Below, in pieces: positions 22,331 through 51,500 of a DNA stretch of 64,000 nt (position 1 is the first letter of the stretch; each line of letters begins with the position of its first letter). A program made the position numbers and the translations under genes. The stretch is from Methylobacterium sp. WL1 (GTDB lineage Bacteria > Pseudomonadota > Alphaproteobacteria > Rhizobiales > Beijerinckiaceae), in contig NZ_CP042823.1 in assembly GCF_008000895.1 (NCBI RefSeq), positions 620,001 through 684,000 of the forward strand, read 5' to 3'. The notes beneath the pieces were generated by a model. That model saw only the letters and a list, made by a program, of their open reading frames with translations. It ran no database searches and was not told the DNA's origin.

Positions 22331-25300
22331 TCACTCCGCGGCGTCCGAGTGGCGGAAGCCCTCGACCCCGACCTGCTCCGGGTTGATCGCGTGCAGCGCC
22401 CGGCGCGCCGCCTCCAACGGGTGCTCGGCCTCGATCCGCACCGACGTCAGATCCGGGCTCTTGTAGACGGTGACGATGGTGTCCATCACCTCGGTCAGCG
22501 TTGTGCGCTTGTCCTCGGGGGCGGCGATCAGCAGTTGCAATCCCCAGGCGCGGTAGAGATCGACCAGCGCCTGGCTGTTGCGCACGTCGAGCTTGGAGAA
22601 CGCCTCGTCGAGGAGACAGAGGCCCAGGCCCGGATTCTCGTCGCCGGGCCGGTCGCCCGGATAGTAGGCGCTCGCCAGCGAAGCCGCGATCGCCACGTAG
22701 AACGGCGCCTGCGCCTCGCCGCCGGACCCGCGCAGCGCCCGCGCCGACATCGTCGTGCGGTTGCCGGCCGCGTCCTTCATGCCGATCTCGTACACGAAGT
22801 AGTTGCGGTAATCGGCGAGCCGGGCCGCATCCTCCTGGCCGGCGATCAGCGCGGTGATCTCTTCCAGCGCCGCCGCCATCGGCCCCTCGGTTTCGCCGGC
22901 CAGCAGCGCCTGCGCGGCCTCGGGGGAGCGGGCGGTCTCGGTGGCCAGGGCGTGGACGGCGGCGTAGCGCCGGTCCACCGCCGCCTCGAACGCGTAGGTC
23001 TGGCCGGTGAAGCTGCGCGCCGAGAGCCGCTCGTTCAGGGCGGCGAGCCGGGCATGGACCCGCTCGAACCGGTCGGCCAGGCGGGTGAGAAGATCCTCGG
23101 TCATGAGCCGGCGCATCTCGACCTCGGCCCGCTCGGCCTGGGCGCGGTAGCGGCGCAGCTCGTGGCCCTCGACGGCCTCGTATTCCTTGGAGACCCAGGC
23201 GTAGCCGTCGATCGCCGGGGCGTCGCCGGCGTTCAGCGGATTCTCGACCCGCCAGGCCGAGCAGGCCTCGGTCAGCTCGCGCTCGGCGACGCGCCCGTGC
23301 GAGCGGGCCGCCTCGGCGGCCTCCGGGCGAGCCCGCGCTCTGTGGCGGCCCGTGTGCCCGCGGCCTTGGCGTCGAGGCCCGCGAGCGCACCCGCGCCTGC
23401 GCGATCACGCCGATGCCGAACGTCTCGGGGCGGGCGAGGCGCACCCGCGCCGCGTCGCCGCCCATCGCCTGCCGCAGGGCTGAGCGCCGGGCCGCCAGCG
23501 CCGCGCGGGCGGCCTCGCGCACGGTCCCGAGGCGCCCCGCAGCGCCGCCTCGTCGGCGAGCAGGCGGTCGAGCTTCGGTTCCAGATCGTCGGACAATTCC
23601 CGCAGGTAGCCGATCCGCTCGGTGGTCAGCGCGGCGATCTCGGCGGTGAGGCCGGCATTGTCGCGCTTCTCGATGCCCTCGCGCTCGGTCTGGAGCGTGC
23701 GCCGCCGCCCCTCCAGCCCGTCCAGCTCGCTCCGCAGGGTATCGACGTCGTCGAGGCCGCGCGCGATGCGGGCCCGGACCGCCGCGGCGGTGCGGGCGGC
23801 CTCGCGCAGGACAGCCGCCTCGCCGCGCAGCCGCCGGGCCTCCGCAACCGCGGCCTCGTGCGCCCTGCGGCTGTCCACCGTGGGCCCGCGATGGCCGCGG
23901 GTCATCAGCAGATCGACGCTGCGGGTCACCGAATAGGCCATGCCGGCCGTGGTCCGGCCGCTCGGCGCAACGGCGCGGGACAGGCGGGCGAGCTCGGCAT
24001 CGTCCTTTGCCAGGTCGTAGCCCCCGAGCCGCACCCCCAAAAACGCCTCCGCGTGCGGGTCGCTGGTCTCGATCACGGTGAGCGGGCCGTCATCGTAGCG
24101 GCGCGCCCGCTGCTTCGCGGTGTCGGTGGTCTTGACCAGGATGCAGCGGTGGAACCGGTCGCGGCCCGATTGCAGGACGCCCAGCGCCTCGCTCAGCCGG
24201 TCGGGCGCCACCACCAGGGCCTCGCGGGCGCGCCCGAGCAGGCCCTCCAGCGCGGGCCCCCAGGTCGGGTCGACGATCTCGGCCAGCTCGCAGATCGGCA
24301 GCGCGTCGATGTCGCGCCGGGCCAACTCCCCGGAACGCGACCGTATCGGAGGACAGGCGCGCCGCCGGGCCGGCGCCGGTGCGCGGCGCGGTGCGCTCGG
24401 CCCGCGCTCTCCTGCGCGCGGGCCTTCAGGGCGGCATCCTCGGCCGCCCGCTCCAGGGGCCTCGTCGAATTCCGGCAGGCGCCGCAGCCCGTCGATCAGG
24501 TCCGCCAGGGGCCCGTCCGGGCGCAGGATCTCGTCGGGCGAGGATTCCCGGCGCAGGCCGGCCCGGGCGCAGGATTCCGCGAGGCGGGCCGCCGGCGGGC
24601 AGGCCTGTCGCAGGATCGGGGCGACCGGCTGAAGCTTGCCCATCTGGCCGACCAGGCCGACGAGGTCGGCGATCCGGGCGGAGAGGTCCTTCCGGTCCCG
24701 CTCCAGCATCGACAGGCCCAGCGTCGAGGCGGCGAGCCGGCCCTCCGCGGCGCTGCCGGCGAGCAGGGCCTTCTTCTCGGCGATCTCGCCGTCGATCTCC
24801 CGGACGTGGCCGCGGCTCGCCGCGACCCGCTCCCGGGCGATCCGCAACGTGTCGGCACCCTCGCGCAGGCGCAGGCGGACCGCGACGAGGTCGAGGCTGC
24901 GGCGGCGCAGCTCGGCGCAGGCCGCCGCGAACTCGTGGGTGGCAGCGGCCAGCACCGCCTCGCCCCAGGCCTCGTAGCGGTCGCGCAGGCGCCGCAGCCG
25001 GGCGAGACGGCTCTCCAGTTCGCCGATCGTCTCGAGCAGGCGGCGCCAGTTGGCGATGGAGAGCCGCACCCGCTCGACGTCCAGGGGCTCCGGGTCGAGC
25101 ACGAAGGCGCGCACGAAGGCGCTGGTGTCGAAGATCGGCTTGAACGCCACGGCGTTGGAGAAGCTGCGCAGGAAGTGCCGCGGCTCGGGGGAGGGCGCGC
25201 CCTCGCGCAGGGTCGCCAGGATGTCGGCGGTGAAGCGCTCGCCGGAGGTCCGGTACTCGGTGAAGCTCGCCGCCCGGGCGCGCAGATCCGCGGCGATCTC

Positions 25301-25765
25301 GCTCCACGGCGCCGTGAAGCTGCCGCCCGGTGCGGTGCGGGTATAGTCGGCGACCTCGAACCGGTGCCCGACCGCGATGAAGCGGGACAGCACGGTCTCA
25401 CGCGGCTCCACCGCCCGGGCCGCCAGCGCCAGCCCGACCGTGACGGTGCGGCCCGAGGCGGGGTTCTCGAACACCAGGGCCAGCACGGTCTCGCAGGATT
25501 CCCGCGTCGGCCGTCCGCCCTCCGCCGGATCGCTGATCCAGCCCAGGCAATAGTCGCGCACCGTGCGGGCGCTGCGTCCGGAGGCCGAGGCGTTCAGCGC
25601 AAGCCGGCTGGCGTTGTTGCCGGCGAGCACCGTGCCGACCGCGTCGAAGATCGTGGACTTGCCGGCCCCCGTCGGCCCGACCAGGGCGGCGGCGCCCCGG
25701 AGGCGGATCTGCTCGCGCCGGATCAGGTACCAGTTCGAGATGGCGATGTCGGTGAGGACGTACAC
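22331..25765 (-). pseudogene. jetC: jetC/mksB-like SMC ATPase, multiply frameshifted
   Basis: The gene encodes a MukB/JetC-type SMC ATPase of about 1,140 residues, the motor of Wadjet/Mks complexes. Walker A is GPTGAGKST near the N-terminus; the ABC signature SGGEAQAPFYVAIAASL and Walker B LCLLDEAFSKLD lie near the C-terminus, with coiled coil between. A likely start is GTG 25765 ([15 protein letters not shown]); an ATG at 25831 is possible. Two clusters of single-base indels occur. Around 24340-24465 three apparent insertions leave the frame open but scramble about 43 residues. Around 23340-23535 three apparent deletions lead to a stop at 23405; the original frame resumes beyond. Walker A and Walker B thus lie on separate reading frames, so full-length product is unlikely. 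Confidence 0.75.
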
Positions 25766-25928
25766 GATGTCGGGAGGCCGGGCCGCTGTCGGAAGGATGT
25801 GCGGACCAGTTGGCCGGGTTCGGCCGCGCATGCAAGCTTCGGCGTTCCCGGCGCCGAGCTGTCACCTCAACCGGGATTCGCAACTTGTCAGACAATTTTG
25901 CGCCTGTATCGTCCCGCCGGAGGGATCC

Positions 25929-27614
25929 ATGAAAACCATGCGCACCAGTCTAAAGTTTACCTTGAGCGGCCTCTTCGCCCTGCTCCTCCTGGCCGCCACG
26001 CTTCAGGGCGGGTTCGCGATCCATCGGATGATCGCACTCGACCGCCAGCTCGCGACGCTGCTCGATCACGCGGTCCTGTCGATGAACGAGGCGCAGGCCA
26101 TCGAGGCGCTGGTGATCCGGTCGCGGCTCACGCAGGTCCGCTTCGTCACCGCGATGGCCGAGACCGAGCGGCAGCTCACCGTCAAGGAGGTCGAGGGGCT
26201 GACCCGGGAGCGGAACGCCAAGGTCGAGGCCTATCGGACGCTGATCGCCTCGCCCGACGAGAAGGCCCGGTTCGACGACCTGCTCGCCAAGCTCAAGGTG
26301 CAGCACTACGACTGGGAGCGCCTGCGCGGCTTCACGCTCGAGCAGCGCGACCCGGCGATGTCGTATTTCCGCGGAGCGATGAACGGCCATTACGTCGCCG
26401 CCGCCGGAGCCGCGCACGCGCTGGCCGAGATGAACATCCAGGCCGGCGACGCGGCCGGGCGCAGCGCCCGCGGGAGCCAGGCCGAGGCGGTCCGCTCGAC
26501 CGTGATCATGCTGGGCGTCACGCTGCTGATCGCCCTGGGGGCGACGCTCTACAGCTTCGTCGGCGTCTCGCGCCCGATCACCGTCATGACCCAGGCCATG
26601 CGCCGGCTGGCGGACGGCGACGTGCAGGCGGAGATCCCCTACGCGGCCCGCCGGGACGAGATCGGCGCCATGTCGGCCACCGTGGCGGTGTTCCGGCGGA
26701 ACCTGCTGCATACCCGCACCCTCGAGGGCGAGGCGGCACGAGCCCGCGCCGAGTCCGAGACCCAGCGCCGGGAGGCGACGCGGACGCTGGCCGACCGGTT
26801 CGAGGGCGCCGTCGGCGGCATCCTCGGCTCGGTGACCGCGGCGGCGACTCGGTTGCAGGCCACCGCCCAGGGCCTGAACGCGACCGCGTCGCAGACCGCC
26901 GGCCGGTCGACCGGCGCGGCGGCGGCGGCCGAGCAGGCCTCCACCAACGTGACCACGGTGGCGGTGGCGGCCGAGCAACTGGGCTCGACGGTGGACGAGA
27001 TCGGGCGCCAGGTCGGCGCCTCGGCCGATCTGGCCCAGGCCGCCGTCCACGAGGCGGCCGCGACCGCGCAGCTGGTCCAGGCCCTGAGCACGGGGGCGCA
27101 GCGGGTCGGGGAAGTCGTGACGCTGATCTCCTCGATCGCCGACCAGACCAACCTGCTGGCCCTGAACGCCACCATCGAGGCCGCGCGGGCCGGGGAGGCG
27201 GGGCGCGGCTTCGCGGTCGTCGCCACCGAGGTGAAGGCGCTCGCGGCCCAGACCGCCCGGGCCACCGCCGAGATCGCGGCGCAGATCGGCCGGATCCAGG
27301 GCTCGACCGGCGAGGCGGTGCGGGCGATCGACGGCATCGCGGCCCGCATCCGCGACATCAGCGGGATGGCAACCGCGATCGCCGCCGCCGTGGAGGAGCA
27401 GGGCGCCGCGACCCAGGAGATCGTCCGCAACGTCACCCAGGCCGCCACCGGAACCGAGGCGGTGACCGCCAACGTCACCGGCGTGGCCGGCGCCGCAGCG
27501 GCGACCGGGCAAGCGGCCGGGCAGGTGCTCGATTCGGCCTCCGAGATGGCCCGGCAGGCGGCGCAGCTCGGCGAGGAGGTCGAGCATTTTCTGGCGACGG
27601 TGCGCGCGGCTTGA
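25929..27614 (+). CDS. Methyl-accepting chemotaxis protein
   Basis: This 561-residue chemoreceptor has a transmembrane helix at about 10-30, a periplasmic helical sensor domain (about 31-188), a second helix near 190-212, a HAMP domain and a cytoplasmic signalling domain with the hairpin tip [20 protein letters not shown]. It should control the CheA kinase in response to an unknown ligand. GGAGGG four bases before ATG 25929 is a strong ribosome binding site. It lies between jetB and jetC and points the opposite way, which splits that locus; codon use resembles its neighbours. Confidence 0.93.
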
Positions 27615-27785
27615 GACGCCGGGTTACCGTTTGCGCCGAGCTCCTTTCCCGGGCGCAGGCAGCGTGAGCGGCCGGCGATCCAGCGGAACGCGACGCGTCC
27701 GCGCGCAGCGACATGGCACCCCCTGACGGTCCAGGCGTCCGGGAACCGGGCGCGGTTCATCCGCCAGCGGTGCCGAGGGCCGCCC

Positions 27786-28418
27786 TCAGAGCTCCCCGGC
27801 TTCCGACCACGCCCGCAGGCGCTCCAGCCAGGCGTCGGAGGCCAGCACCGCGAGGCCCGGCAGCAGCGACAGCGGCGTGACCCGCTCGACCCGGTCGCGC
27901 TCGCCCATCCGCAGGCCCCCGCGCCGGGCGTAGAGGCGCAGAATGTCGGCGAGCCGGCCCTCTTCCGGGGGCTCGTTGCGGGCGACGGCCCGGATCTTCT
28001 CCACGATCTCGTCGGTGGTGCACGCGACGATCCCGTCCGTGCCGGCGCGGTTGTCGCGCAGGCCCTCCTCGTAGAGCAGCCGCAGCGCCAGCAGCACCAG
28101 GGTCTCGTCCTTGCGCAGGCGCTCGGAGGCGATGTCGTGCCGGGGCGCGTCGGCGGCGGGGCTCAGCGACACCATCTGGTCGCGGTGCGAGACCGTGAGC
28201 GCGTAGCCCAGGCAGGCGAAGTAATCTGTGAAGAACGGCGCGTAGTGCCGGGCCAGCTCGTAGGAGCGGCCGATGCCGGGCGTGTCGGCGTAGATCACCT
28301 GACCCTTGAGCATCACCTGGAGGGCGCGGCACAGCTCCTCGGCGTCCGGAGCGCGGGCACCCGGCGGCGGCGGCTCGTCGCCGTCGATGATCGCGCGAAA
28401 TCCCTCAAGCACCGGCAC
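27786..28418 (-). CDS. jetB: JetB/MksE-like subunit (DUF4194 type)
   Basis: The 210-residue protein resembles the JetB/MukE/MksE winged-helix subunit that bridges the kleisin JetA and regulates the SMC motor. Typical features are the N-terminal ALQVMLKGQVIYADTPGIGR, FFTDYFACLGYAL, and the ETLVLLALRLLYEEG segment. The GTG start at 28418 overlaps the end of jetA by 14 bases, showing an operon. In a full Wadjet operon jetC would follow directly; here an opposite chemoreceptor gene intervenes. The frame itself looks intact. Confidence 0.8.
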   Translation of the reverse strand: MPVLEGFRAIIDGDEPPPPGARAPDAEELCRALQVMLKGQVIYADTPGIGRSYELARHYAPFFTDYFACLGYALTVSHRDQMVSLSPAADAPRHDIASERLRKDETLVLLALRLLYEEGLRDNRAGTDGIVACTTDEIVEKIRAVARNEPPEEGRLADILRLYARRGGLRMGERDRVERVTPLSLLPGLAVLASDAWLERLRAWSEAGEL

Positions 28419-29775
28419 GCCGCTCCAGCAGGAAATCGGGACAGTCCAGCCAGCCGTTGGCCAGCCGCTCGGGCAGCCGGACCACCGCGTAGCGGTCGCG
28501 CAGCCGCGCGTCGAACAGCACCTCGATCTCGCGCAGGCGCTGGAACACCACGAAGTCGTCGACCCCCTCGATCGCGATCTGCGAGCCGCGCAGCGATACG
28601 GCCTTGCCGAGCCGCGCCTCGACGAAGGCCGTCATGGTCTCCGGCGTGACGGTGGTGCGGCGGCGGAACTCGGCCTTGGCGGCCGCGAAGGCATCCACCG
28701 CGGGGTCGTAGTCGATATCCGGCAGCGGCTCGACGTCGATGGCGCTGCGGCGGGCGCGCGGCGTCTGCAGGTGACCCTGGCCGATCGGCGGCCGGAGCAG
28801 CGACACCACCGGCGGCACCTCCGGCGCGACCTCGGCGGCGCCGACGGCGCGCAGCATCCCGGCGACCCGCTCGATCCCCGAAGGGTCCGGCCGGTCCATG
28901 GCATGGAGCGCGGCGCCGATCCGCCGTTCCAGGCGCGCCACCACGGCATCGACCGCGTCGAGATGGTTGTCGAGCCCCTCGAACACCGAGAGGATCTGGG
29001 CGAGATCGGCCCGGACCGCGCGCTGCGCGGTGTCGAGGTCGGGGCTGCGGCCCTCGCGGATCTGCCCCTCGGCCAGCGCCCGCACCGTGAGGGCGTCGCG
29101 CAGCGCCCGCCCGGCCTCGCGGACCACGCTGGCGCGGAACCGGAACGGATTGAACCGGGTGTGCAGCGTCCGGTAGTCGCTGATCAGGTGGCGTTCGACG
29201 AAATCCTCGAAGAACAGCCGGAAGGTCTTGGCCCGGTCGGGCTCGCGCAGGATCCGCTCCTCGACCTTGCGCATGCCGGCGGCGAGTCCGCGGACATGGG
29301 CCAGGAACGCGGCGGACGCCCGGGCGGCGTTGGACAGGGCCTCGGAGCGGTTGGCCGGATCGGAGACGGCGCTCTCCAGGCCGCCCAGCACCTCCAGCAC
29401 CGCGCCGCCATACGAGCGGGTCTCGCCCCGCTCCAGGCGCGACAGCTCCTCGAGCAGGAGGCGTGCCTCCGGGTCGAACTCGGCCACCGGGACGTAGCGC
29501 TCGCGGCGCTCGAGCAGCCAGCCGGTCTCCAGGAGGCGCCGGTAGAGGGCGTTGCGGCGTTCGGCCGGATCCGCGGAGATCGGCTCGTCGCCCAGGATCT
29601 CGGGGTCGCTCCAGCCGGCGGCGAAATCGCCGATCTCGGCGAGCAGCTCGGCCTTGCGCACCGGCTCCGCCCCGAGGACGCGCCGGTGCAGGTGCAGCAG
29701 CAGGGCCGCGTTGAAGCCCCGGCTCGGCGAGGCCAGCGGCTTGAACAGCTCGTCGGGCAGCTGCGCGAACAGCAT
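28405..29775 (-). CDS. jetA: Wadjet JetA family protein (MukF/MksF-like kleisin)
   Basis: The 456-residue protein resembles JetA/MksF, the kleisin that closes the SMC ring in Wadjet anti-plasmid complexes and Mks condensins. The N-terminus (MLFAQLPDELFKPLASPSR, then NAALLLHLHRRVL) and the helical middle with FFEDFVERHLISDYRTLHTR are characteristic of this family as I recall it. The frame is intact. It overlaps jetB, so the two are cotranscribed. Without an intact JetC and with no JetD, anti-plasmid activity is unlikely from this locus alone. The assignment is to family; which Wadjet type is not certain. Confidence 0.8.
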   Translation of the reverse strand: MLFAQLPDELFKPLASPSRGFNAALLLHLHRRVLGAEPVRKAELLAEIGDFAAGWSDPEILGDEPISADPAERRNALYRRLLETGWLLERRERYVPVAEFDPEARLLLEELSRLERGETRSYGGAVLEVLGGLESAVSDPANRSEALSNAARASAAFLAHVRGLAAGMRKVEERILREPDRAKTFRLFFEDFVERHLISDYRTLHTRFNPFRFRASVVREAGRALRDALTVRALAEGQIREGRSPDLDTAQRAVRADLAQILSVFEGLDNHLDAVDAVVARLERRIGAALHAMDRPDPSGIERVAGMLRAVGAAEVAPEVPPVVSLLRPPIGQGHLQTPRARRSAIDVEPLPDIDYDPAVDAFAAAKAEFRRRTTVTPETMTAFVEARLGKAVSLRGSQIAIEGVDDFVVFQRLREIEVLFDARLRDRYAVVRLPERLANGWLDCPDFLLERRAGA

Positions 29776-30409: not shown

Positions 30410-32929
30410 TCAGGCGGCGATGTCGGCGGACGCGGTTTTCATGAGGTCCACGATGAGGTTGTAGGTTTCGGTCCAAGCGTCCCGAACCTCCGGCGTGAAG
30501 GCCGGGCCGAGCCCCTGCTCCAAGGTCCAGAGCAGGGCGGCGCCGACCGGCGCGAAATGGTCGTTCCTCGTGCCGTAGCCCACGTGACGCTGGCCGAGTT
30601 CCTGGACCCTGGCCGTCAGAGTCGCCGGCTGATCCAGATTGGCGACCGCGAGCCCGAGCATCGTCATCAGCTTCTTCTTCTGCGGGGCCATGTCGTCCGG
30701 AAACATGGAGCGGACCTGCGGGGCGATCTCGAACAGGCGTCCGTAGAACAGGTCGGCCGCCGTACCGGCGATCGGCCGGACCTTCTCGAAGCTGTCCCGC
30801 ACGAGCTGGATCTGACGCGGCGCCATCGCGTAGACCGTACGCACGTTCATCAGGAAGCGGGTCACTTCCGCGGTGAGCTGCTCGGACTGGCGCGACAGGA
30901 CCGAGGCCGACCCCAGGACCTGGTTCGCCGCCCGCCCGGCCTGCTCCACCGCCCCCGCCACGCCAACGATGTTGCTGGTCACCGCACCGGTGCCGGTCGC
31001 CGCCTGCCCGACATTGCGGACGATCTCCTGGGTGGCGGCGCCCTGCTCCTCAACCGCGGCGGCGATACTGGTCGACACGGCGCTGATTTCCTGGATCCGT
31101 CCGGTGATCGCGCCGATCGCCGAGACCGCCTGGCCCGTCGAGGTCTGGACGCGTGTGATCTGCCCGGAGATCTCCTCGGTGGCCTTGGCGGTCTGCTCGG
31201 CCAGCGCCTTCACTTCGGCGGCGACGACCGCGAAGCCGCGCCCGGCCTCACCCGCGCGCGCCGCCTCGATCGTCGCATTGAGCGCCAGCAGGTTCGTCTG
31301 GGCGGCGATGGACGAGATCAGCCCGACCACGTCGCCGATCCGCGCCACGGCGCTGCTCAACTCTTGTACCAGCGCCCCGGTCCGATCGGTCTCGCCCACC
31401 GCGCCCTGCGCGAGCTTGGCCGATCCATCGACCTGCCGGCCGATCTCCTCGACCGAGGTTCCCAGTTCCTCGGCGGCGGCCGCCACCGTGTTGACGTTGC
31501 TGGCGGCCTCCTCGGCTGCGGAGGCGACTGTGACGGCCTGGCCAGCCGTCCGATCGACCGTTGCGGTCAGGGTTTGTGCGGTGGCTTGCAGGTCCGTGGC
31601 GGAGACCGACACCTGTTTGATGATGCCGCCGACCGCGGTCTCGAACGACTCGGCCAAAGCCCGCATGCCGTCACGACGCTGCACCTCGGCGGACAACCGT
31701 TCCCGCACGGTCTCGGCCTCAAGCGCGCGGGTGCGGATCAGGTTGTCCTTGAACACCTGCACCGTCCGCGCCATCGCGCCCACCTCGGTGTTGCGGTCGC
31801 GCAGCGGCACCTCGACCGACGCGTCGCCGTCGGCCAGGGCCTGCATGGTCCCGGTCATCGTCCGGATCGGACGCAGCACCAAGCGGAACAGGGCGACCAG
31901 GCCGAGGGCGACGAGCAGCCCGGAGACCAGCAGCGCCGCCACGTTGCGCACCAGGACGCTGCGTGCATCCTGGGCCAGGGTCTCGGCGCGCGCGATCATC
32001 TCGTCGAGGGCGGCGTAGGCGAGGTCCACGAGGGTGGCCTGTTCCGGGGTGTCGAGCTTGCGCGCCTGCTGGAGCGTGATCCCCGGCGGCTGAGCTTGCG
32101 CCAAAGCTGTCGAGACCGCCATGCGCCGGTCGAGGGGCGCGCCCTCGAAATTGTTGGTGCGGGCCTTGTCGAAGGCCGCCCAGACGGTGCCCGAGAGGGT
32201 CGCCGACGTCTCCGCGGCGAGCTTCCACGTGGCGTCGAGCCGCCCCCGCTCCTCGGCGGCGGCGACAGTCTCGGCGGGCGACCAGGGCGTCCCGGCCGAC
32301 AGGGATGTCTGGATCCGCAGCGCGATGGCGCCGAGCGCCATACGGGTCGCCCAGGCCGAGCGCTTGAGGGCGAGATCGCGCTCCAGGACGGTATCGGAGC
32401 GCGGGATCGCGGCATCGACCGCATCCGTCGTCGCCGTCAGGGTGTCGAGCATGGCGAGGAAGGCCGTCTGCGCCTCCGCGGTGATGGAGGCGTCACGCTG
32501 GGCCTTCGACACCTTCAGGGCGTCATCCACCCGGGGGCGGAGGCGCTCGACACGCTCGCGGGACGCCTGAAGCTGACCGAGCGTCGCCCGGACGGAGGGC
32601 AGATCCAGGTCGCCCACCAGTGTCGTCGCGGCGGCGATGCCGGCGACCGCCCGCTGCCGCTCCGTGTAGAGCCCGGACAGGGTCTCGGCATCCATCGGCT
32701 GGCCGGCGGCCAGGAACTGCAGGGTGGCGCCCCGCTCCAGCCGCGTCGCGTACAGGGTCTGGAGCAGCGCGCGGCTCGCCCGCACGAGCGAGATACCCGC
32801 CTCGGCCTGGACAGCAGAAGCACGGGCTCCGATCAGCGCGGACGTTGCATAGGTGAAGATAATCAGACCCAAGACGAAGAGCACCACGCTCATCGTCATT
32901 CGGATCGAAATATTTTGCAGGCGGATCAT
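30410..32929 (-). CDS. Chemoreceptor with C-terminal globin domain
   Basis: The 839-residue protein combines, in order: a transmembrane helix (about 8-30), a helical periplasmic sensor whose start ([14 protein letters not shown]) recalls NIT-type nitrate/nitrite sensors, a second helix near 312-335, HAMP, a chemotaxis signalling domain (tip [20 protein letters not shown]), and a flavohaemoglobin-like globin from about 700 to the end. The globin has a candidate proximal His782 (GQRHVGYG) and Gln750 at the distal region (MAPQKKKL), so haem binding is expected. Known globin receptors such as HemAT carry the globin at the N-terminus; here it follows the signalling domain. ATG 32929 has GGGAG seven bases upstream. 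Confidence 0.88.
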
Positions 32930-33392
32930 CGCACAACTCCCGAAGCCCGGCGGTTGCGAGGTCATGTCTTACACCGCATCATTTGTCGAATGTTATGACA
33001 ACGAGCCTGTTTGACCTCTCTCCAACCGACGTCGCGGGCTGACAATCGATACTCGAACTCATTCGTATCGGAACTGCATCCGTCGGAAAATTTTGGCGCC
33101 TTCGTTTCAATTGAAAGCTGTTTAACGGTGTATTTACGCTCGCAATCGCGCGGGTCACTGGTCATCGCGCCGGGGTGGGGCGTTTCGACCACGGCTCCGG
33201 GCCGGGCGCGATGACGGCGCGCGGCACGCCCCCCCAGAGCCGCGCGGGCGACGAAGTCCGCGCAGGGCGTGCCGAGGGCTCACTCCCTCGTGTGGGGAGG
33301 TGGGGTGGGGGCGGTTCTGAAGGCGCGGCTCCGCGCGATCCGACGCATCCCCCATCCCCGGGCCCCTCCTCACGGGGGGGCGTTCAAAGCAC
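32930..33392. other. Intergenic region between chemoreceptor and porin genes
   Basis: About 460 bases. The right part (33180-33390) is extremely GC-rich with a G-rich tract near 33291-33312 and a small hairpin CGAGGG/CCCTCG at 33273-33290. The left part (32990-33130) is AT-richer and should hold the chemoreceptor promoter. No gene is seen. Confidence 0.4.
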
Positions 33393-47278: not shown

Positions 47279-47319
47279 GCCCGTGCCGGCAACCCCGCCA
47301 CCGGAGCCGGCGGGCGGGC

Positions 47320-47335
47320 AGTGGGTCAGTTTGAA
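47320..47335 (+). repeat. Left terminal inverted repeat of the element
   Basis: AGTGGGTCAGTTTGAA, exact reverse complement of the sequence at 51295-51310. Confidence 0.75.
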
Positions 47336-47392
47336 ATATCGCCTGCTTGACCCAGCCTTGGTCACAGCGGGTGCGCATGGCATGATGGGCGG

Positions 47393-47608
47393 ATGAAAGA
47401 GTCCGATCTTGCATCCGTGACGGTAGAGGCGAAGCGCATTGATGGTGCCGCCCGCCCATGGGCCTTCGTTCTTAAGCGGAATGGCGTGTTGCAGATGACG
47501 TCAGGACCAGCGTTCGCTACCAGCTTCGAAGCCGTTCAAGCAGGCAACCGTGCCTTGGCCAACATGAAGCCTCACCGCGACGAAGCCAAGTCGAAGGGTT
47601 GGACTTAA
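47393..47608 (+). CDS. Hypothetical protein, 71 residues (passenger)
   Basis: A small soluble protein with no recognised domain; it has a beta-type middle (RPWAFVLKRNGVLQM) and a basic end. Its stop overlaps the start of the next gene as TAATG, so the two are probably translated together. The ribosome binding site is weak. It is the first passenger gene inside the mobile element. Confidence 0.55.
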   Translation: MKESDLASVTVEAKRIDGAARPWAFVLKRNGVLQMTSGPAFATSFEAVQAGNRALANMKPHRDEAKSKGWT

Positions 47609-47805
47609 TGACCACCACCAAGCGCCCCCGCGATCCCAACCAGCTCGCCAAGTTCATCGTGGACATGGCCACGGGGGAGACTGAGAGCAAGCAACCTTTG
47701 GAAAGCGCGGTTAAGGGTGGCAACGCTCGTGCTAGTGCGCTTACGCCTAAGCAACGCGCGGAGATTGCGCGCGTTGCAGCCGATGCACGGTGGAAGAAGT
47801 CATAG
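47608..47805 (+). CDS. Small conserved-type protein, 65 residues (passenger)
   Basis: The sequence KRPRDPNQLAKFIVDMATGE and a C-terminus of the form ALTPKQRAEIARVAADARW resemble a widespread small protein of unknown function whose C-terminus is rich in Ala/Lys/Arg (histone-tail-like). ATG 47608 overlaps the previous stop, with AAGGG upstream. Function unknown; nucleic-acid binding is only a guess from charge. Confidence 0.65.
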   Translation: MTTTKRPRDPNQLAKFIVDMATGETESKQPLESAVKGGNARASALTPKQRAEIARVAADARWKKS

Positions 47806-48285
47806 TCAAGCAGCTTCCTCGTCGTCAGCTCCGTCAGTAGCCTTTCGAATAGCGATATCTAGTGTTAAATCCATCGGCAAGCTGATAGGCTCCGCGTCTG
47901 GGTTGATATTATTCCAATGATCAAGATCAAGCTCGACATTATAGCCATCGCTAATCATTTGCTCGCGGCGAATAACTGAAGCCTTTAGCATTTGATTGCG
48001 GGTGGCCTCATCAATGTCAACATATACAAAGAGGTTAAGCTGACCGCTGGCTGGGATTGCGTGATAAACCCGATACGGCCTGTCAGTCGCTTTGTCTTGT
48101 TTGCGCTCCGCTTGAGCATCATCCGCAAATTGTTTCGCAAGCAAATCTAGTGCGGACGGCGGCGTCGGCATATTCCAGCCTAGCTCTTTTGCAAAAAGAG
48201 CCACCCTCTTCATGTCGACTTCGGTTTATCCAGTCGTCTCTTTATAGTGACGGATTAGGCGCTGACGTTCTTGTCTTTTGCTCAT
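47806..48285 (-). pseudogene. Partner protein gene of the ImmA/IrrE gene, nonsense at codon 20
   Basis: From ATG 48285, with AAAAGG eight bases upstream, the frame reads MSKRQERQRLIRHYKETTG, then a TAA at 48226-48228, then TEVDMKRVALFAKELGWNMP and onward without shift to 47806. A Lys codon AAA changed to TAA explains it. A restart at ATG 48213 would give 135 residues (with a typical ISDGYNVELDLDHWNNINPD segment). The gene follows the HTH-ImmA/IrrE gene by 16 bases, so it is the second gene of that operon. Function unknown. Confidence 0.6.
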
Positions 48286-48301
48286 TTCAAAAACCTTTTC
48301 T

Positions 48302-49426
48302 TTAGATAGGGGCAACATCACCCCAGCCATCTTTCATTGCATTGGGAGATATTAGCTCACGAACCGCAGTAAGATGATTGCGGAAGCGGTCATAACGACC
48401 AGTTTTACGTTGGAGTTGGCCTGCAACAAGCCCAGGATGGACTTTGAGTACTTTGGCAAATCCAATCAAATCTCTTTCCGTGAAGAACGGAGCTTTGCGC
48501 GCTATGAATGCGTCCATCATTGCAGAGGGAACGCAAAATTCCTGAGCCGCAGTATTTGCGACCCGCTCTTCATCAGTTAAATCTTCACCTGTTCCAGCTT
48601 TATCTTTTTCTAGCTCAGAGTCTATAATAGCAGAAACCATTCCGTGGCCCTGAAGAACGTGCTCAATCTCGTGGCGAAGAACGAACCAGAAGTTATCGAT
48701 CCTATCGAAGCGCAACGACATGCCTATTACTGGAGTTTTTCCACCTAACCAGAAACAGACTCCGTCTATTTTTGCGCTCGGCAGAGACTCAACCAGCACG
48801 AAACGCACGCCACTTTGTGCTAATATGCGCGGTACATCTGCCACGCCTTCGGCAGAGCGAACCAGAGCTTGGAGTTTGCTGACCGAAGTTTTGAGCGACT
48901 GCTGGGAATATGGGGCTACAAGCATGTCGGCCGCTATCTGTCTGACGCGGTATAGCCAAGCCAACTGCGCAGGGGTGGCGGTGGAACTAACCGCTGTCTT
49001 TTTAGCTGCGTGAGGGAGTATTTCGATATCCTCTAACCGATTAGCCCCAAAGAAGCGCATCAACTCCGACTCTACCTGCTGAATATCACGCACGCTCTCA
49101 GCAGCAATCCATCCCCGCTTTATCATTTCAGCAATAGGTAGGTCTCCATAAAGCAATGCACGCGTTGCACGTCCGGGATCAGGTCGATAAGTTATTCGTG
49201 CCTTAGCAAGATCGAAGCTGCGTTGAAGGTCTAAGAAATCCTCTGCTGGGACCTCAAATACCTCTTCTAAAGCCAAAGCTAGAACGGCATCGACTGATCT
49301 TTTGTCTCCGACAAGTTTGTTTACGCCCGTTTCGTCCATGTTGAGGACGATTGCGAGCACGCGTTGGGTCCAGCCTCTTTTCGTGAGAAGGGCAGCAATA
49401 AGCTGCCCCGGCGTCTTGTGGTTCAT
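48302..49426 (-). CDS. HTH-ImmA/IrrE metallopeptidase family protein
   Basis: The protein joins an N-terminal lambda-type HTH (GQLIAALLTKRGWTQRVLAI, then DETGVNKLVGDKRSVDAVLA) to a C-terminal ImmA/IrrE zinc peptidase domain with HEIEH as the HExxH motif. Such proteins are HigA-like antitoxins or phage/ICE repressor-cleaving proteases. ATG 49426 (374 residues, MNHKTPGQLI) is chosen as the domain starts there; ATG 49492 would add 22 unlikely residues. It is AT-richer than the chromosome and lies inside the mobile element, with its partner gene directly downstream. Confidence 0.82.
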   Translation of the reverse strand: MNHKTPGQLIAALLTKRGWTQRVLAIVLNMDETGVNKLVGDKRSVDAVLALALEEVFEVPAEDFLDLQRSFDLAKARITYRPDPGRATRALLYGDLPIAEMIKRGWIAAESVRDIQQVESELMRFFGANRLEDIEILPHAAKKTAVSSTATPAQLAWLYRVRQIAADMLVAPYSQQSLKTSVSKLQALVRSAEGVADVPRILAQSGVRFVLVESLPSAKIDGVCFWLGGKTPVIGMSLRFDRIDNFWFVLRHEIEHVLQGHGMVSAIIDSELEKDKAGTGEDLTDEERVANTAAQEFCVPSAMMDAFIARKAPFFTERDLIGFAKVLKVHPGLVAGQLQRKTGRYDRFRNHLTAVRELISPNAMKDGWGDVAPI

Positions 49427-49531
49427 TCCTGCGTCCGCTCCTTGCCTTCGCGCACGATATGCCAACATGCGCATAATCGCAAACTGACTCATAATGCTTG
49501 CTGTCTAGGGACGACCGCGATAAGAAGGTAT

Positions 49532-50419
49532 ATGAACAAGCTCTCCGCTTCGGACCGCGCGCGCATCTTGCACCTCCTCTGCGAAGGCACGTCGATCCGC
49601 GCTGTGACCCGGCTGACGGGAGCGAGCAAGAATACGGTCGCGAAGCTGCTGGTGGATGCCGGTAAGGCGTGCGCCGCCTACCATGACGAGCACGTCCGCA
49701 ACGTCGCCGCCAAGCGCGTGCAGGTGGACGAGATTTGGGCCTTCACGCACTGCAAGCAGAAGAATGTGGCAACGGCCAAGGCCGCGCCGGATGATGCTGG
49801 CGATGTGTGGACGTGGACGGCGATCGACGCCGAAAGCAAGCTCGTGCTGTCCTATCTCGTCGGCGGTCGCGATGCTGAGTACGCCAACGGCTTTATGCTC
49901 GACGTGGCGAACCGCCTGAAGGGCCGCGTGCAGCTGACGTCAGACGGCCTGCGCACCTACCTTGAGGCCGTCGAGGGGGCTTTCGGTGCCGATGTGGACT
50001 ACGCCCAGCTGGTGAAGTCCTACGGCGCCGTCCCGGATGGCACCAAAGGCCGCTACAGCCCGGCCGAATGCACCGGGATCAAGAAGACCTCCATTGAGGG
50101 CAAGCCCGACGAGGCGCACGTCTCGACGTCTTTCGTCGAGCGTCAGAACCTCACGATGCGGATGCACATGCGCCGGTTCACGCGGCTTACCAATGCGTTC
50201 TCAAAAAAGGTGGAGAACCACGCTTACGCCGTGGCGTTGCACTTCATGTACTACAACTTCGTGCGGCTGCACGGGAAGCTGCGGGTAAGCCCAGCGATGG
50301 CTGCGGGCGTCACTGATCGACTGTGGGAAATCAGCGATATCGTCGAATTAGTCGAAGCATCCGATGAAAAACCCAGAAAGCGGGGCGTCTATAAAAAGCG
50401 AATTAAGCCCGAAGGTTAG
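49532..50419 (+). CDS. IS1-family-like DDE transposase
   Basis: The 295-residue protein has an N-terminal HTH (ARILHLLCEGTSIRAVTRLT, then SKNTVAKLLVDAG) and a DDE nuclease core: VQVDEIWAF, LTSDGLRTYLEAVEGAFGAD and STSFVERQNLTMRMHMRRFT, followed by NAFSKKVENHAYAVALHF. These match the alphaproteobacterial IS1-like transposases. The acidic triad is intact, so it may be active. AGAAGG lies upstream of ATG 49532. No repeats flank it closely; the nearest matching terminal repeats are at the ends of the 4-kb element. Confidence 0.88.
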   Translation: MNKLSASDRARILHLLCEGTSIRAVTRLTGASKNTVAKLLVDAGKACAAYHDEHVRNVAAKRVQVDEIWAFTHCKQKNVATAKAAPDDAGDVWTWTAIDAESKLVLSYLVGGRDAEYANGFMLDVANRLKGRVQLTSDGLRTYLEAVEGAFGADVDYAQLVKSYGAVPDGTKGRYSPAECTGIKKTSIEGKPDEAHVSTSFVERQNLTMRMHMRRFTRLTNAFSKKVENHAYAVALHFMYYNFVRLHGKLRVSPAMAAGVTDRLWEISDIVELVEASDEKPRKRGVYKKRIKPEG

Positions 50420-50804
50420 CGCTTAAACCAGCCCGCACCTCTTCCACGCCTTCTGTCAGAACAACTAGAAGAGCCATTTCCAGTTTTTCGACATTCAGCT
50501 GAACTTGCTTTTTATGTGCTGCTGTAGAAGACGCCGAATTGTTAGCGTCGTCGCGAAGCCTTCTAGCTTCCGCCAAAGATTTATTTATCTCAGATTTCAA
50601 AATTCTTCTTTTTACGGCAGAAATAACTATTACGCTAATGACGCTGACCACAACCGCTGCGGCGGGTGACGTGAAAGTCAGCAAGTTCTTTAAAAAATGA
50701 TAATCGTCAGGCATCAGAGACGCCAAGCTCAATATAAGCGTCCCAACGCCTGCGCCAGTTACGCTCGAAGTGGTATCTGGTCTTCTACCGTTTGAGGCTG
50801 ACAA
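50403..50804 (-). CDS. Small membrane/coiled-coil protein (passenger)
   Basis: The 133-residue product has two hydrophobic segments (VGTLILSLASLM; AAAVVVSVISVIVISAV) and a C-terminal coiled-coil region (LAEARRLRDDANN, QVQLNVEKLEMALLV). The start is a TTG at 50804 with only a weak ribosome binding site. It is 15 bases after the 91-residue gene and overlaps the transposase 3' end by 17 bases on the opposite strand. No family recognised. Confidence 0.5.
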   Translation of the reverse strand: MSASNGRRPDTTSSVTGAGVGTLILSLASLMPDDYHFLKNLLTFTSPAAAVVVSVISVIVISAVKRRILKSEINKSLAEARRLRDDANNSASSTAAHKKQVQLNVEKLEMALLVVLTEGVEEVRAGLSANLRA

Positions 50805-50819
50805 GATAAATCCGTCGCC

Positions 50820-51095
50820 TCACGCAGCGTTAGGAATATGACGAGCAGCATTAATTTCTTTGATAGCCCTGTCAATCTTCTCGGGGGTTTCCTTATTAAT
50901 ATCCTTTATATCAATTGTAACTGTCGTTCCATTTATTACAAGCTCAATAAGATCTTTGTCCTCCCGAATGACTTTCGAGTGAACAAATTGAGCATCGCGT
51001 TTTAAACGTAAAAACTCAAAGATCGAGCGGCTGACAGCGACGATAGAGGCCGCGCCCCCCACGACGGCAGCTAAGGTAGCGAAGTCAAAACTCAT
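50820..51095 (-). CDS. Small membrane-anchored protein, 91 residues (passenger)
   Basis: ATG 51095 is preceded by GGAGGAAGG, an excellent ribosome binding site. One N-terminal transmembrane helix (FATLAAVVGGAASIVAV) precedes a soluble part (REDKDLIELVINGTTVTIDI, then EKIDRAIKEI). That layout resembles the short effector-associated adaptor proteins found in conflict systems, but resemblance is loose. It forms an operon with the 133-residue membrane protein. Confidence 0.6.
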   Translation of the reverse strand: MSFDFATLAAVVGGAASIVAVSRSIFEFLRLKRDAQFVHSKVIREDKDLIELVINGTTVTIDIKDINKETPEKIDRAIKEINAARHIPNAA

Positions 51096-51500
51096 GCCTT
51101 CCTCCCAAGCCACCAGCTATAAAAAGGTAGCCAACCTTAGCAACGCTTAGATAGGCCGTCCGGGCTGGATGGGCGGTATCACCCCGCACCATCTCCATGC
51201 AATGTGAATATGGCGTTCCAGAGCCGACGACAAGCGGCCACACGTCACATACGGTTGCATGACAGGCTCCTTGAGGGCTCTATCTGGAAAGAAATTCAAA
51301 CTGACCCACTACCGGCGGGCGCGCCGGATGGACAGCACTGTCGCACCGGACGCGTGACGCAACCCAGGTGATTTCAGCGACGGCGCTCCTGGGCCAGATC
51401 GGGCGCGCCGGATCCGCTCCGGTCGGCCCCGTCGATCATGGGTTTTCGCCCCCTCGGTCCATGGTCAACGGGGCCGCTCTTTCGGTACGGAGCACGCTGG
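51096..51500. other. Right end of the mobile element and flank
   Basis: About 405 bases with no gene. It holds the promoter side of the passenger membrane-protein operon, the right terminal repeat (51295-51310) and the right 10-bp direct repeat (51312-51321). Confidence 0.5.
51295..51310 (-). repeat. Right terminal inverted repeat of the element
   Basis: TTCAAACTGACCCACT, exact reverse complement of 47320-47335. Confidence 0.75.

What the first reader, a model, noticed from the sequence alone, without database searches (positions are those of the whole stretch)
22331..29775. Split, JetD-less Wadjet/Mks locus
The sequence shows an intact overlapping jetA-jetB pair, a broken jetC 2 kb away and no JetD-type gene (topoisomerase-VI-like nuclease subunit) on either side. 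Known Wadjet operons run jetA-jetB-jetC-jetD and need JetD to cut plasmids. Either this was a Wadjet system that decayed from its motor end, or it descends from a three-gene MksFEB-type condensin. Retained JetA-JetB without motor could mark a dominant-negative or repurposed pair.
Basis: partly seen in the sequence, partly recalled or inferred. Interest (0 to 1): 0.72.

Follow-up and report, generated by a model that had tools for sequence, protein, structure and literature searches.

The report
Nuclease-less Wadjet replacing SMC condensin
Most Methylobacterium genomes examined carry three of the four parts of a plasmid-cutting defence machine, without the cutter, and appear to use it in place of the standard chromosome-organising SMC complex, which they lack.

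Summary
In detail: jetA and jetB are intact and overlap, jetC lies 2 kb away in two pieces, and no jetD was found. Decay is the wrong story. The window is from a close relative of Methylobacterium mesophilicum. In 41 genomes of its genus, JetA and JetC occur in the same 35; JetD was found in 0 of 41. In relatives jetC is intact, with conserved ATPase motifs in 53 of 53 full copies, even where other genes or a move elsewhere separate it from jetAB. Canonical SMC and ScpA were found in none of the 35 JetABC genomes, but in 5 of the 6 without JetABC; ScpA also in 11 of 11 other genomes of the family and 7 of 7 JetA-bearing genomes elsewhere in the order. Unrooted trees place this JetABC among nuclease-bearing Wadjet systems. 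Best reading: a Wadjet complex without its nuclease became the condensin of most of the genus, as MukBEF did in enterobacteria. The window's own jetC lesion (six small indels in two clusters that each return to frame) is private and probably an assembly error or very recent. Replacement is inferred from genomes only; one genome (G251) showed neither complex.

The parts
28405..29775 (-). jetA (kleisin subunit, MukF/MksF-like), 456 aa, intact
   Evidence: PF18982 E 2.9e-62; PADLOC JetA1; the five PDB matches of its AlphaFold model with E <= 0.001 are chains of Wadjet JetABC and MukBEF structures (that these chains are the kleisins is inferred from their length)
27786..28418 (-). jetB (KITE subunit, MukE-like), 210 aa, intact; overlaps jetA by 14 bp
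   Evidence: PF13835 E 1e-18; PADLOC JetB1; profile matches PDB JetB weakly, E 0.005; best fold match of its model is the JetB chain of 8as8
23405..25831 (-). jetC 5' part (SMC-type ATPase; Walker A head and coiled coil); the start that matches relatives is GTG at 25765
   Evidence: PF13555 E 1.3e-12; PADLOC JetC1 positions 1-745; Walker A as in relatives
22331..23116 (-). jetC 3' part (signature motif and Walker B head)
   Evidence: PF13558 E 1.9e-20; PADLOC JetC1 positions 889-1149; motifs as in relatives
23117..23404 (-). part of jetC between the two ORFs; its high-coordinate end belongs to the second out-of-frame stretch. The first such stretch lies at about 24.3-24.5 kb. The frame is regained after each. 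Not seen in relatives
25929..27614 (+). methyl-accepting chemotaxis protein gene between jetB and jetC on the other strand; shared with M. mesophilicum, brachiatum, fujisawaense and others; not part of the complex
   Evidence: PF00015, PF00672, PF12729; same arrangement in 8 of 31 genome loci and 18 of 70 named loci, two sets that overlap

Best explanation
This is a Wadjet complex (type I by PADLOC label) without its nuclease JetD that now serves as the chromosomal condensin of most of Methylobacterium/Methylorubrum in place of Smc-ScpAB. JetC dimers form the ATP-driven SMC ring, JetA is the kleisin that closes it, and JetB is the KITE subunit. By established knowledge of Wadjet and MukBEF, JetABC is a DNA loop-extruding motor; without JetD it could compact and segregate DNA but not cut it. 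Shown here: subunit identity, conserved ATPase motifs, no JetD in 41 genus genomes, co-retention of the subunits despite repeated separation of the genes, changes that are mostly synonymous, and a distribution complementary to SMC/ScpA. Supported by unrooted trees: placement among JetD-bearing systems, so loss of JetD rather than an original three-gene state. Inferred: that the complex extrudes loops, acts on the chromosome and functionally replaced Smc-ScpAB. The lesion in this genome's jetC is probably an assembly error or very recent.
For: JetA in 32 of 37 genus genomes plus 3 of 4 more; JetC in exactly the same 35 of 41. JetD_C in 0 of 41, but in 6 of 7 over-cut-off JetA-bearing genomes elsewhere in the order (the seventh, G206, has only a JetA fragment). 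SMC at full strength in 5 of 41, all JetABC-negative. ScpA in the same 5 of 41, in 11 of 11 other genomes of the family and in 7 of 7 JetA-bearing genomes elsewhere in the order. Names collected by hand from listings: 12 Methylobacterium with SMC, 74 with JetA, no overlap. Walker A and signature motifs the same in 53 of 53 full JetC proteins, Walker B the same but for one L/F change beside it. Pairwise distances of JetA, JetB and JetC correlate at r 0.96-0.97. jetC is intact on another contig than jetA in G024, G027, G032, G305 and G421; in G027 jetB went with jetC. JetC of M. mesophilicum matches the solved Wadjet JetC chains (E 1.7e-12). Trees: nearest JetC is that of R. leguminosarum pRlX5, next the JetD-bearing G396 (JetA tree agrees). 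Window-specific changes in jetC: 25 synonymous to 5 non-synonymous outside, 4 to 1 inside, the out-of-frame stretches.
Against: No experiment. G251 (same genus) gave no JetA, JetC, SMC, ScpA or PF13558 match, so either a condensin is dispensable there or something was missed. The SMC search scored only 12 of 53-119 first-look candidates per genome, and 41 of 41 genomes had some match at E <= 0.001, in the 35 JetABC genomes only short weak ones (best E 1.4e-13). The complementary pattern may rest on one evolutionary event, so the Fisher p of 8e-6 overstates it. R. leguminosarum pRlX5 and a Salipiger plasmid also carry JetABC without a detected JetD, so lacking JetD need not go with being the only condensin. 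The trees are unrooted and some branches are long. Taken at face value, the window's own jetC is broken.
Confidence: 0.73

Rival explanations
1. Decayed Wadjet: the defence locus lost jetD and is losing jetC, and jetAB is a relic or dominant-negative pair.
For: Here jetC is interrupted and split from jetAB, and jetD is absent.
Against: jetC is open and full length in 32 of the 35 genus genomes that have it; ATPase motifs conserved in 53 of 53; the split is old and shared; the subunits are kept through repeated rearrangement.
Confidence: 0.06
2. Still a defence system: JetABC recognises circular DNA and an unrelated nuclease encoded elsewhere cuts it.
For: Public annotation calls many of these proteins 'Wadjet anti-phage system protein JetA family protein'. 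PF09983 would miss an unrelated nuclease.
Against: Subunit genes are often unlinked and, in the M. mesophilicum-like part of the genus, lie between the same chromosomal neighbours; the inserted genes that were tested are unrelated (chemotaxis receptor, LysR, glyoxalase, hydrolase, acetyltransferase); Smc-ScpAB was not found in the same genomes.
Confidence: 0.1
3. JetABC is an accessory SMC complex, and Smc-ScpAB was lost for unrelated reasons (condensin is dispensable in these bacteria).
For: G251 seems to lack both. JetABC without a detected JetD also occurs on plasmids.
Against: Of 41 genus genomes only G251 shows neither complex; strong conservation and co-retention of the subunits.
Confidence: 0.11
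4. On the local lesion only: jetC is truly broken in this strain, which then lacks a working condensin.
For: Six frame-changing indels and one in-frame TGA in a 2-contig assembly; the other genes compared had at most 3 such indels (52 genes called in the relative's stretch, not all of them covered by the alignment).
Against: Both clusters return to frame; the indels lie in GC-rich sequence (0.68-0.88 within 12 bases); changes specific to this genome are mostly synonymous inside and outside the stretches.
Confidence: 0.25

Closest known systems
Wadjet type I (JetABCD; also called EptABCD or MksBEFG)
   Same: JetA, JetB and JetC families (PADLOC type I labels), gene order A-B-C in the simplest loci, ATPase motifs, fold matches to solved JetABC
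   Different: JetD nuclease found in 0 of 41 genus genomes; jetC separated from jetAB in many; shared across the genus; Smc-ScpAB not found. C. glutamicum MksBEFG, called type I in print (PMC10123090 passage), has a JetA of another Pfam family: PF11855 rings there and PF18982 does not
MukBEF of enterobacteria
   Same: A Muk-type SMC complex that apparently replaced Smc-ScpAB (review PMC10586767, passages seen); no nuclease
   Different: Different, much diverged family; here the relatives are Wadjet systems and the host an alphaproteobacterium
MksBEF of Pseudomonas aeruginosa
   Different: It works beside SMC (PMC7485682, abstract start and passages); here no SMC was found. The JetB here matches PF13835, and MksE PF21980 only below cut-off

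Membership tests
Wadjet type I defence system | JetA, JetB and JetC of the type I families (as labelled by PADLOC) | tested here: met
   PADLOC JetA1, JetB1, JetC1; PF18982, PF13835, PF13555/PF13558
Wadjet type I defence system | JetD nuclease (Toprim, PF09983) | tested here: not met
   0 of 41 genus genomes; a 121-sequence JetD profile finds none in 8649 ORFs of the fetched genus loci and the window
Wadjet type I defence system | Cuts small circular plasmids | not testable with these tools
   needs a bench assay
Wadjet type I defence system | JetB N-terminal IFDR motif that contacts JetD (PMC10586767 section 7) | tested here: inconclusive
   Not seen in the genus, but not recognisable by eye in the JetD-bearing JetBs compared either
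MukBEF-like/MksBEF condensin | SMC-type ATPase with kleisin and KITE subunits, no nuclease | tested here: met
MukBEF-like/MksBEF condensin | MksE family KITE (PF21980) | tested here: not met
   17.9 bits against a cut-off of 27
MukBEF-like/MksBEF condensin | Replaces or supplements Smc-ScpAB in chromosome organisation | tested here: inconclusive
   Distribution fits replacement; the function itself was not tested

The most novel reading that the evidence does not exclude
A nuclease-less type I Wadjet complex is the only and housekeeping condensin of most of the genus Methylobacterium (with Methylorubrum), having displaced Smc-ScpAB in their ancestor: a defence machine domesticated for chromosome maintenance, independently of MukBEF, with living species of the same genus that still use SMC.
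Probability: 0.68. Interest if true: 0.87.

Novelty: new variant of a known kind. Interest (0 to 1): 0.78.

Why it matters
Whether MukBEF and MksBEF condensins descend from Wadjet defence systems is described as unresolved (PMC10586767, section 7 read). Here one genus holds both states, so the swap can be tested directly: SMC-bearing species such as M. nodulans against JetABC-bearing ones such as M. extorquens and M. mesophilicum. It would also mean that Wadjet annotations in Methylobacterium mark a condensin, not a defence system, and that the DNA motor of Wadjet is safe and sufficient on a chromosome once the nuclease is gone.

Tried and rejected
PF11855 (DUF3375) is not in the genome; the right JetA family is PF18982. 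A weak PF13558 hit at G000:C2:3130298 was checked as a possible hidden SMC: the long ORF there (1024 aa) is a branched-chain amino-acid ABC transporter fusion, and a profile built from SMC hits does not hit it. Phage origin: no JetA relative in 50,697 phage records, and none confirmed in viral contigs. PDB sequence searches with the JetA protein and profile gave only chance-like matches, so fold comparison was used. Both AlphaFold models are of moderate confidence. For G938, G952 and G957 no JetD was found either, but they are too distant for my profiles to mean much. Rows below the family cut-off (G212, G659, G673, G828, G845) were dropped from the counts. The places where smc and scpAB would have been lost could not be examined, for the same reason. 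Papers PMC3179180 (the original MksBEF paper) and PMC4119464 are not held, so I cannot exclude that Methylobacterium was noted there as lacking SMC.
Full report
What is there. The window lies in a 6.25-Mb, two-contig genome; its JetA is 99% identical to that of Methylobacterium mesophilicum NBRC 15688. On the minus strand, jetA (28405-29775) and jetB (27786-28418) overlap by 14 bp. After a chemotaxis-receptor gene on the plus strand (25929-27614) comes jetC in two pieces (23405-25831 and 22331-23116). All match Wadjet families, type I by PADLOC label. The intact JetC of M. mesophilicum matches the solved Wadjet JetC chains. The AlphaFold model of JetA has as its five PDB matches with E <= 0.001 chains of Wadjet JetABC and MukBEF structures; the model of JetB matches the JetB chain of 8as8 and further chains of JetABC and MukEF structures. 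The models are of moderate confidence (mean pLDDT 72 and 64) and the overall TM-scores are low (0.32 or less by query length), so they support family membership only.

JetD was not found anywhere in the genus sample. JetD_C (PF09983) was found in 0 of 37 same-genus genomes and 0 of 4 more. Outside the genus, 7 genomes of the order have a JetA over the cut-off in a sample of 397, and 6 of these have JetD, directly after jetC (in G281 on a second contig with the end of jetC). The seventh, G206, has only a JetA fragment. The three further class members over the cut-off (G479, G720, G662) also have a JetD hit. Of 7 further genomes over the cut-off in the phylum sample, JetD was hit in 1 (G900). 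G916, G929 and G1050 have JetABC without a JetD hit; G938, G952 and G957 are too distant to judge.

The complex is kept. JetA is in 32 of 37 genus genomes and 0 of 24 genomes of other genera of the order when sought with this protein, and in 3 of 4 further genus genomes. JetC is in exactly the same 35 of 41: 32 open and full length, 2 cut by contig ends (G010, G028), 1 interrupted (the window). Of 70 named loci, all labelled Methylobacterium or Methylorubrum or MAGs of Methylobacteriaceae/Beijerinckiaceae, 53 hold a full-length jetC and 3 one cut by the contig end; in the other 14 no jetC was called, 5 of them cut short by the contig end. Walker A and signature motifs are the same in 53 of 53, and Walker B too but for one L/F change beside it. 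Pairwise distances of JetA, JetB and JetC correlate at 0.96-0.97 and with two neighbouring genes at 0.88-0.93, against 0.77 between those two neighbours, as expected for vertical co-inheritance.

The operon has been broken in several ways. In 18 of 70 named loci and 8 of 31 genome loci (overlapping sets) the chemotaxis-receptor gene sits between jetB and jetC, as here. In Methylorubrum-type loci a block with LysR, glyoxalase, hydrolase and acetyltransferase genes sits there. In a third group a small gene lies between jetA and jetB. In G024, G027, G032, G305 and G421 jetC is intact on another contig than jetA; for G024, G027 and G032 at least 9 kb beside jetA hold none. In G027 (M. gregans) jetB sits with jetC, leaving jetA alone. 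jetB itself was not searched for genome-wide. This is how housekeeping genes behave, not how defence cassettes usually do (inference).

The canonical condensin was not found where JetABC is present. SMC (TIGR02168) is found at full strength in G011, G014, G019 and G035 and, split over two frames, in G023: five of the six JetABC-negative genomes. All 41 genomes have some match at E <= 0.001, but in the 35 JetABC-positive ones these are short and weak (best E 1.4e-13), none over the cut-off. That search scored 12 first-look candidates per genome, so it was checked with ScpA (PF02616): found in the same five, in 0 of 35 JetABC-positive genomes, in 11 of 11 genomes of other genera of the family and in 7 of 7 JetA-bearing genomes elsewhere in the order. 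In a search of 5.8 billion proteins with one Methylobacterium SMC, the best-scoring named hits are from M. nodulans, WSM2598, tarhaniae, nonmethylotrophicum, crusticola, currus, frigidaeris and similar, then Microvirga. None of the 12 Methylobacterium names collected is among the 74 collected with JetA (names are given for only part of the proteins and only the best 120 are listed). G251 gave no JetA, JetC, SMC, ScpA or PF13558 match: unexplained.

Descent. In the JetC tree the genus is sister to JetABC of R. leguminosarum plasmid pRlX5 (no JetD found), next to Afipia-like G396 (JetD present) with a Salipiger plasmid (no JetD found), among other JetD-bearing systems. Three state changes suffice. 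The JetA tree agrees and adds Aureimonas, Antarcticirhabdus and Roseibium to the sister group (JetD state untested there). The trees are unrooted, so they do not prove loss over gain; loss is the simpler reading because the JetD-bearing systems surround the genus. Whether JetD was lost before or after arrival in Methylobacterium is open. Long branches limit the deeper nodes.

The broken jetC. Against M. mesophilicum, jetC has six frame-changing indels in two clusters that each return to frame; the other genes compared have at most three. Out-of-frame stretches cover codons 436-479 and 744-815 of 1146. Changes specific to this genome are 25 synonymous and 5 non-synonymous outside and 4 and 1 inside those stretches. 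A gene long without function would not look so. I favour assembly error in GC-rich sequence, or a very recent lesion. Intact copies exist in relatives. A split mksB is also reported for P. putida KT2440 (PMC10123090, passage).

Known background. A review (PMC10586767; passages and section 7 read) says P. [quoted passage not shown] P. aeruginosa MksBEF works beside SMC (PMC7485682, abstract start and passages). Searches for Methylobacterium with Wadjet (3 papers), with Smc and condensin, with MksB (none), with at least three of Methylobacterium/ScpA/ScpB/MukB/chromosome segregation (12 of 90 listed) and for JetABC/Wadjet terms (15 of 18 listed) listed no paper that by title and start of abstract describes this; I did not open the hits for it, and subscription journals are mostly not held. 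The call is therefore 'new variant of a known kind': a Wadjet-related, nuclease-less condensin that seems to stand alone.

Noticed in passing
G251 (same genus as the window): No JetA, JetC, SMC, ScpA or PF13558 match in a genome listed as 100% complete: possibly a natural condensin-less Methylobacterium, or a miss.
   Followed up: partly
L273 (R. leguminosarum plasmid pRlX5), L274 (Salipiger plasmid): JetABC without a detected JetD on large plasmids; the Rhizobium one is the nearest relative of the Methylobacterium complex in the JetC tree.
   Followed up: partly
L220, L221, L222 (G1050, G929, G916): Three other Pseudomonadota genomes have JetABC with no JetD hit in 13-kb loci: possibly a further nuclease loss.
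   Followed up: partly
window 27786-28418 (JetB N-terminus): Methylobacterium JetB has a conserved acidic, proline-rich N-terminal insert (DGDEPPPPG-like) not seen in the JetD-bearing JetBs compared.
   Followed up: no
window 30410-32965 (-): Chemotaxis receptor with a globin domain at its C-terminal end (PF00042 at 740-840); by recall, globin-coupled sensors usually have it at the N-terminus.
   Followed up: no
window 47316-51312: Low-GC stretch (0.53-0.57) without counterpart in the aligned M. mesophilicum stretch, with a transposase-like gene and an IrrE/ImmA-type gene.
   Followed up: partly
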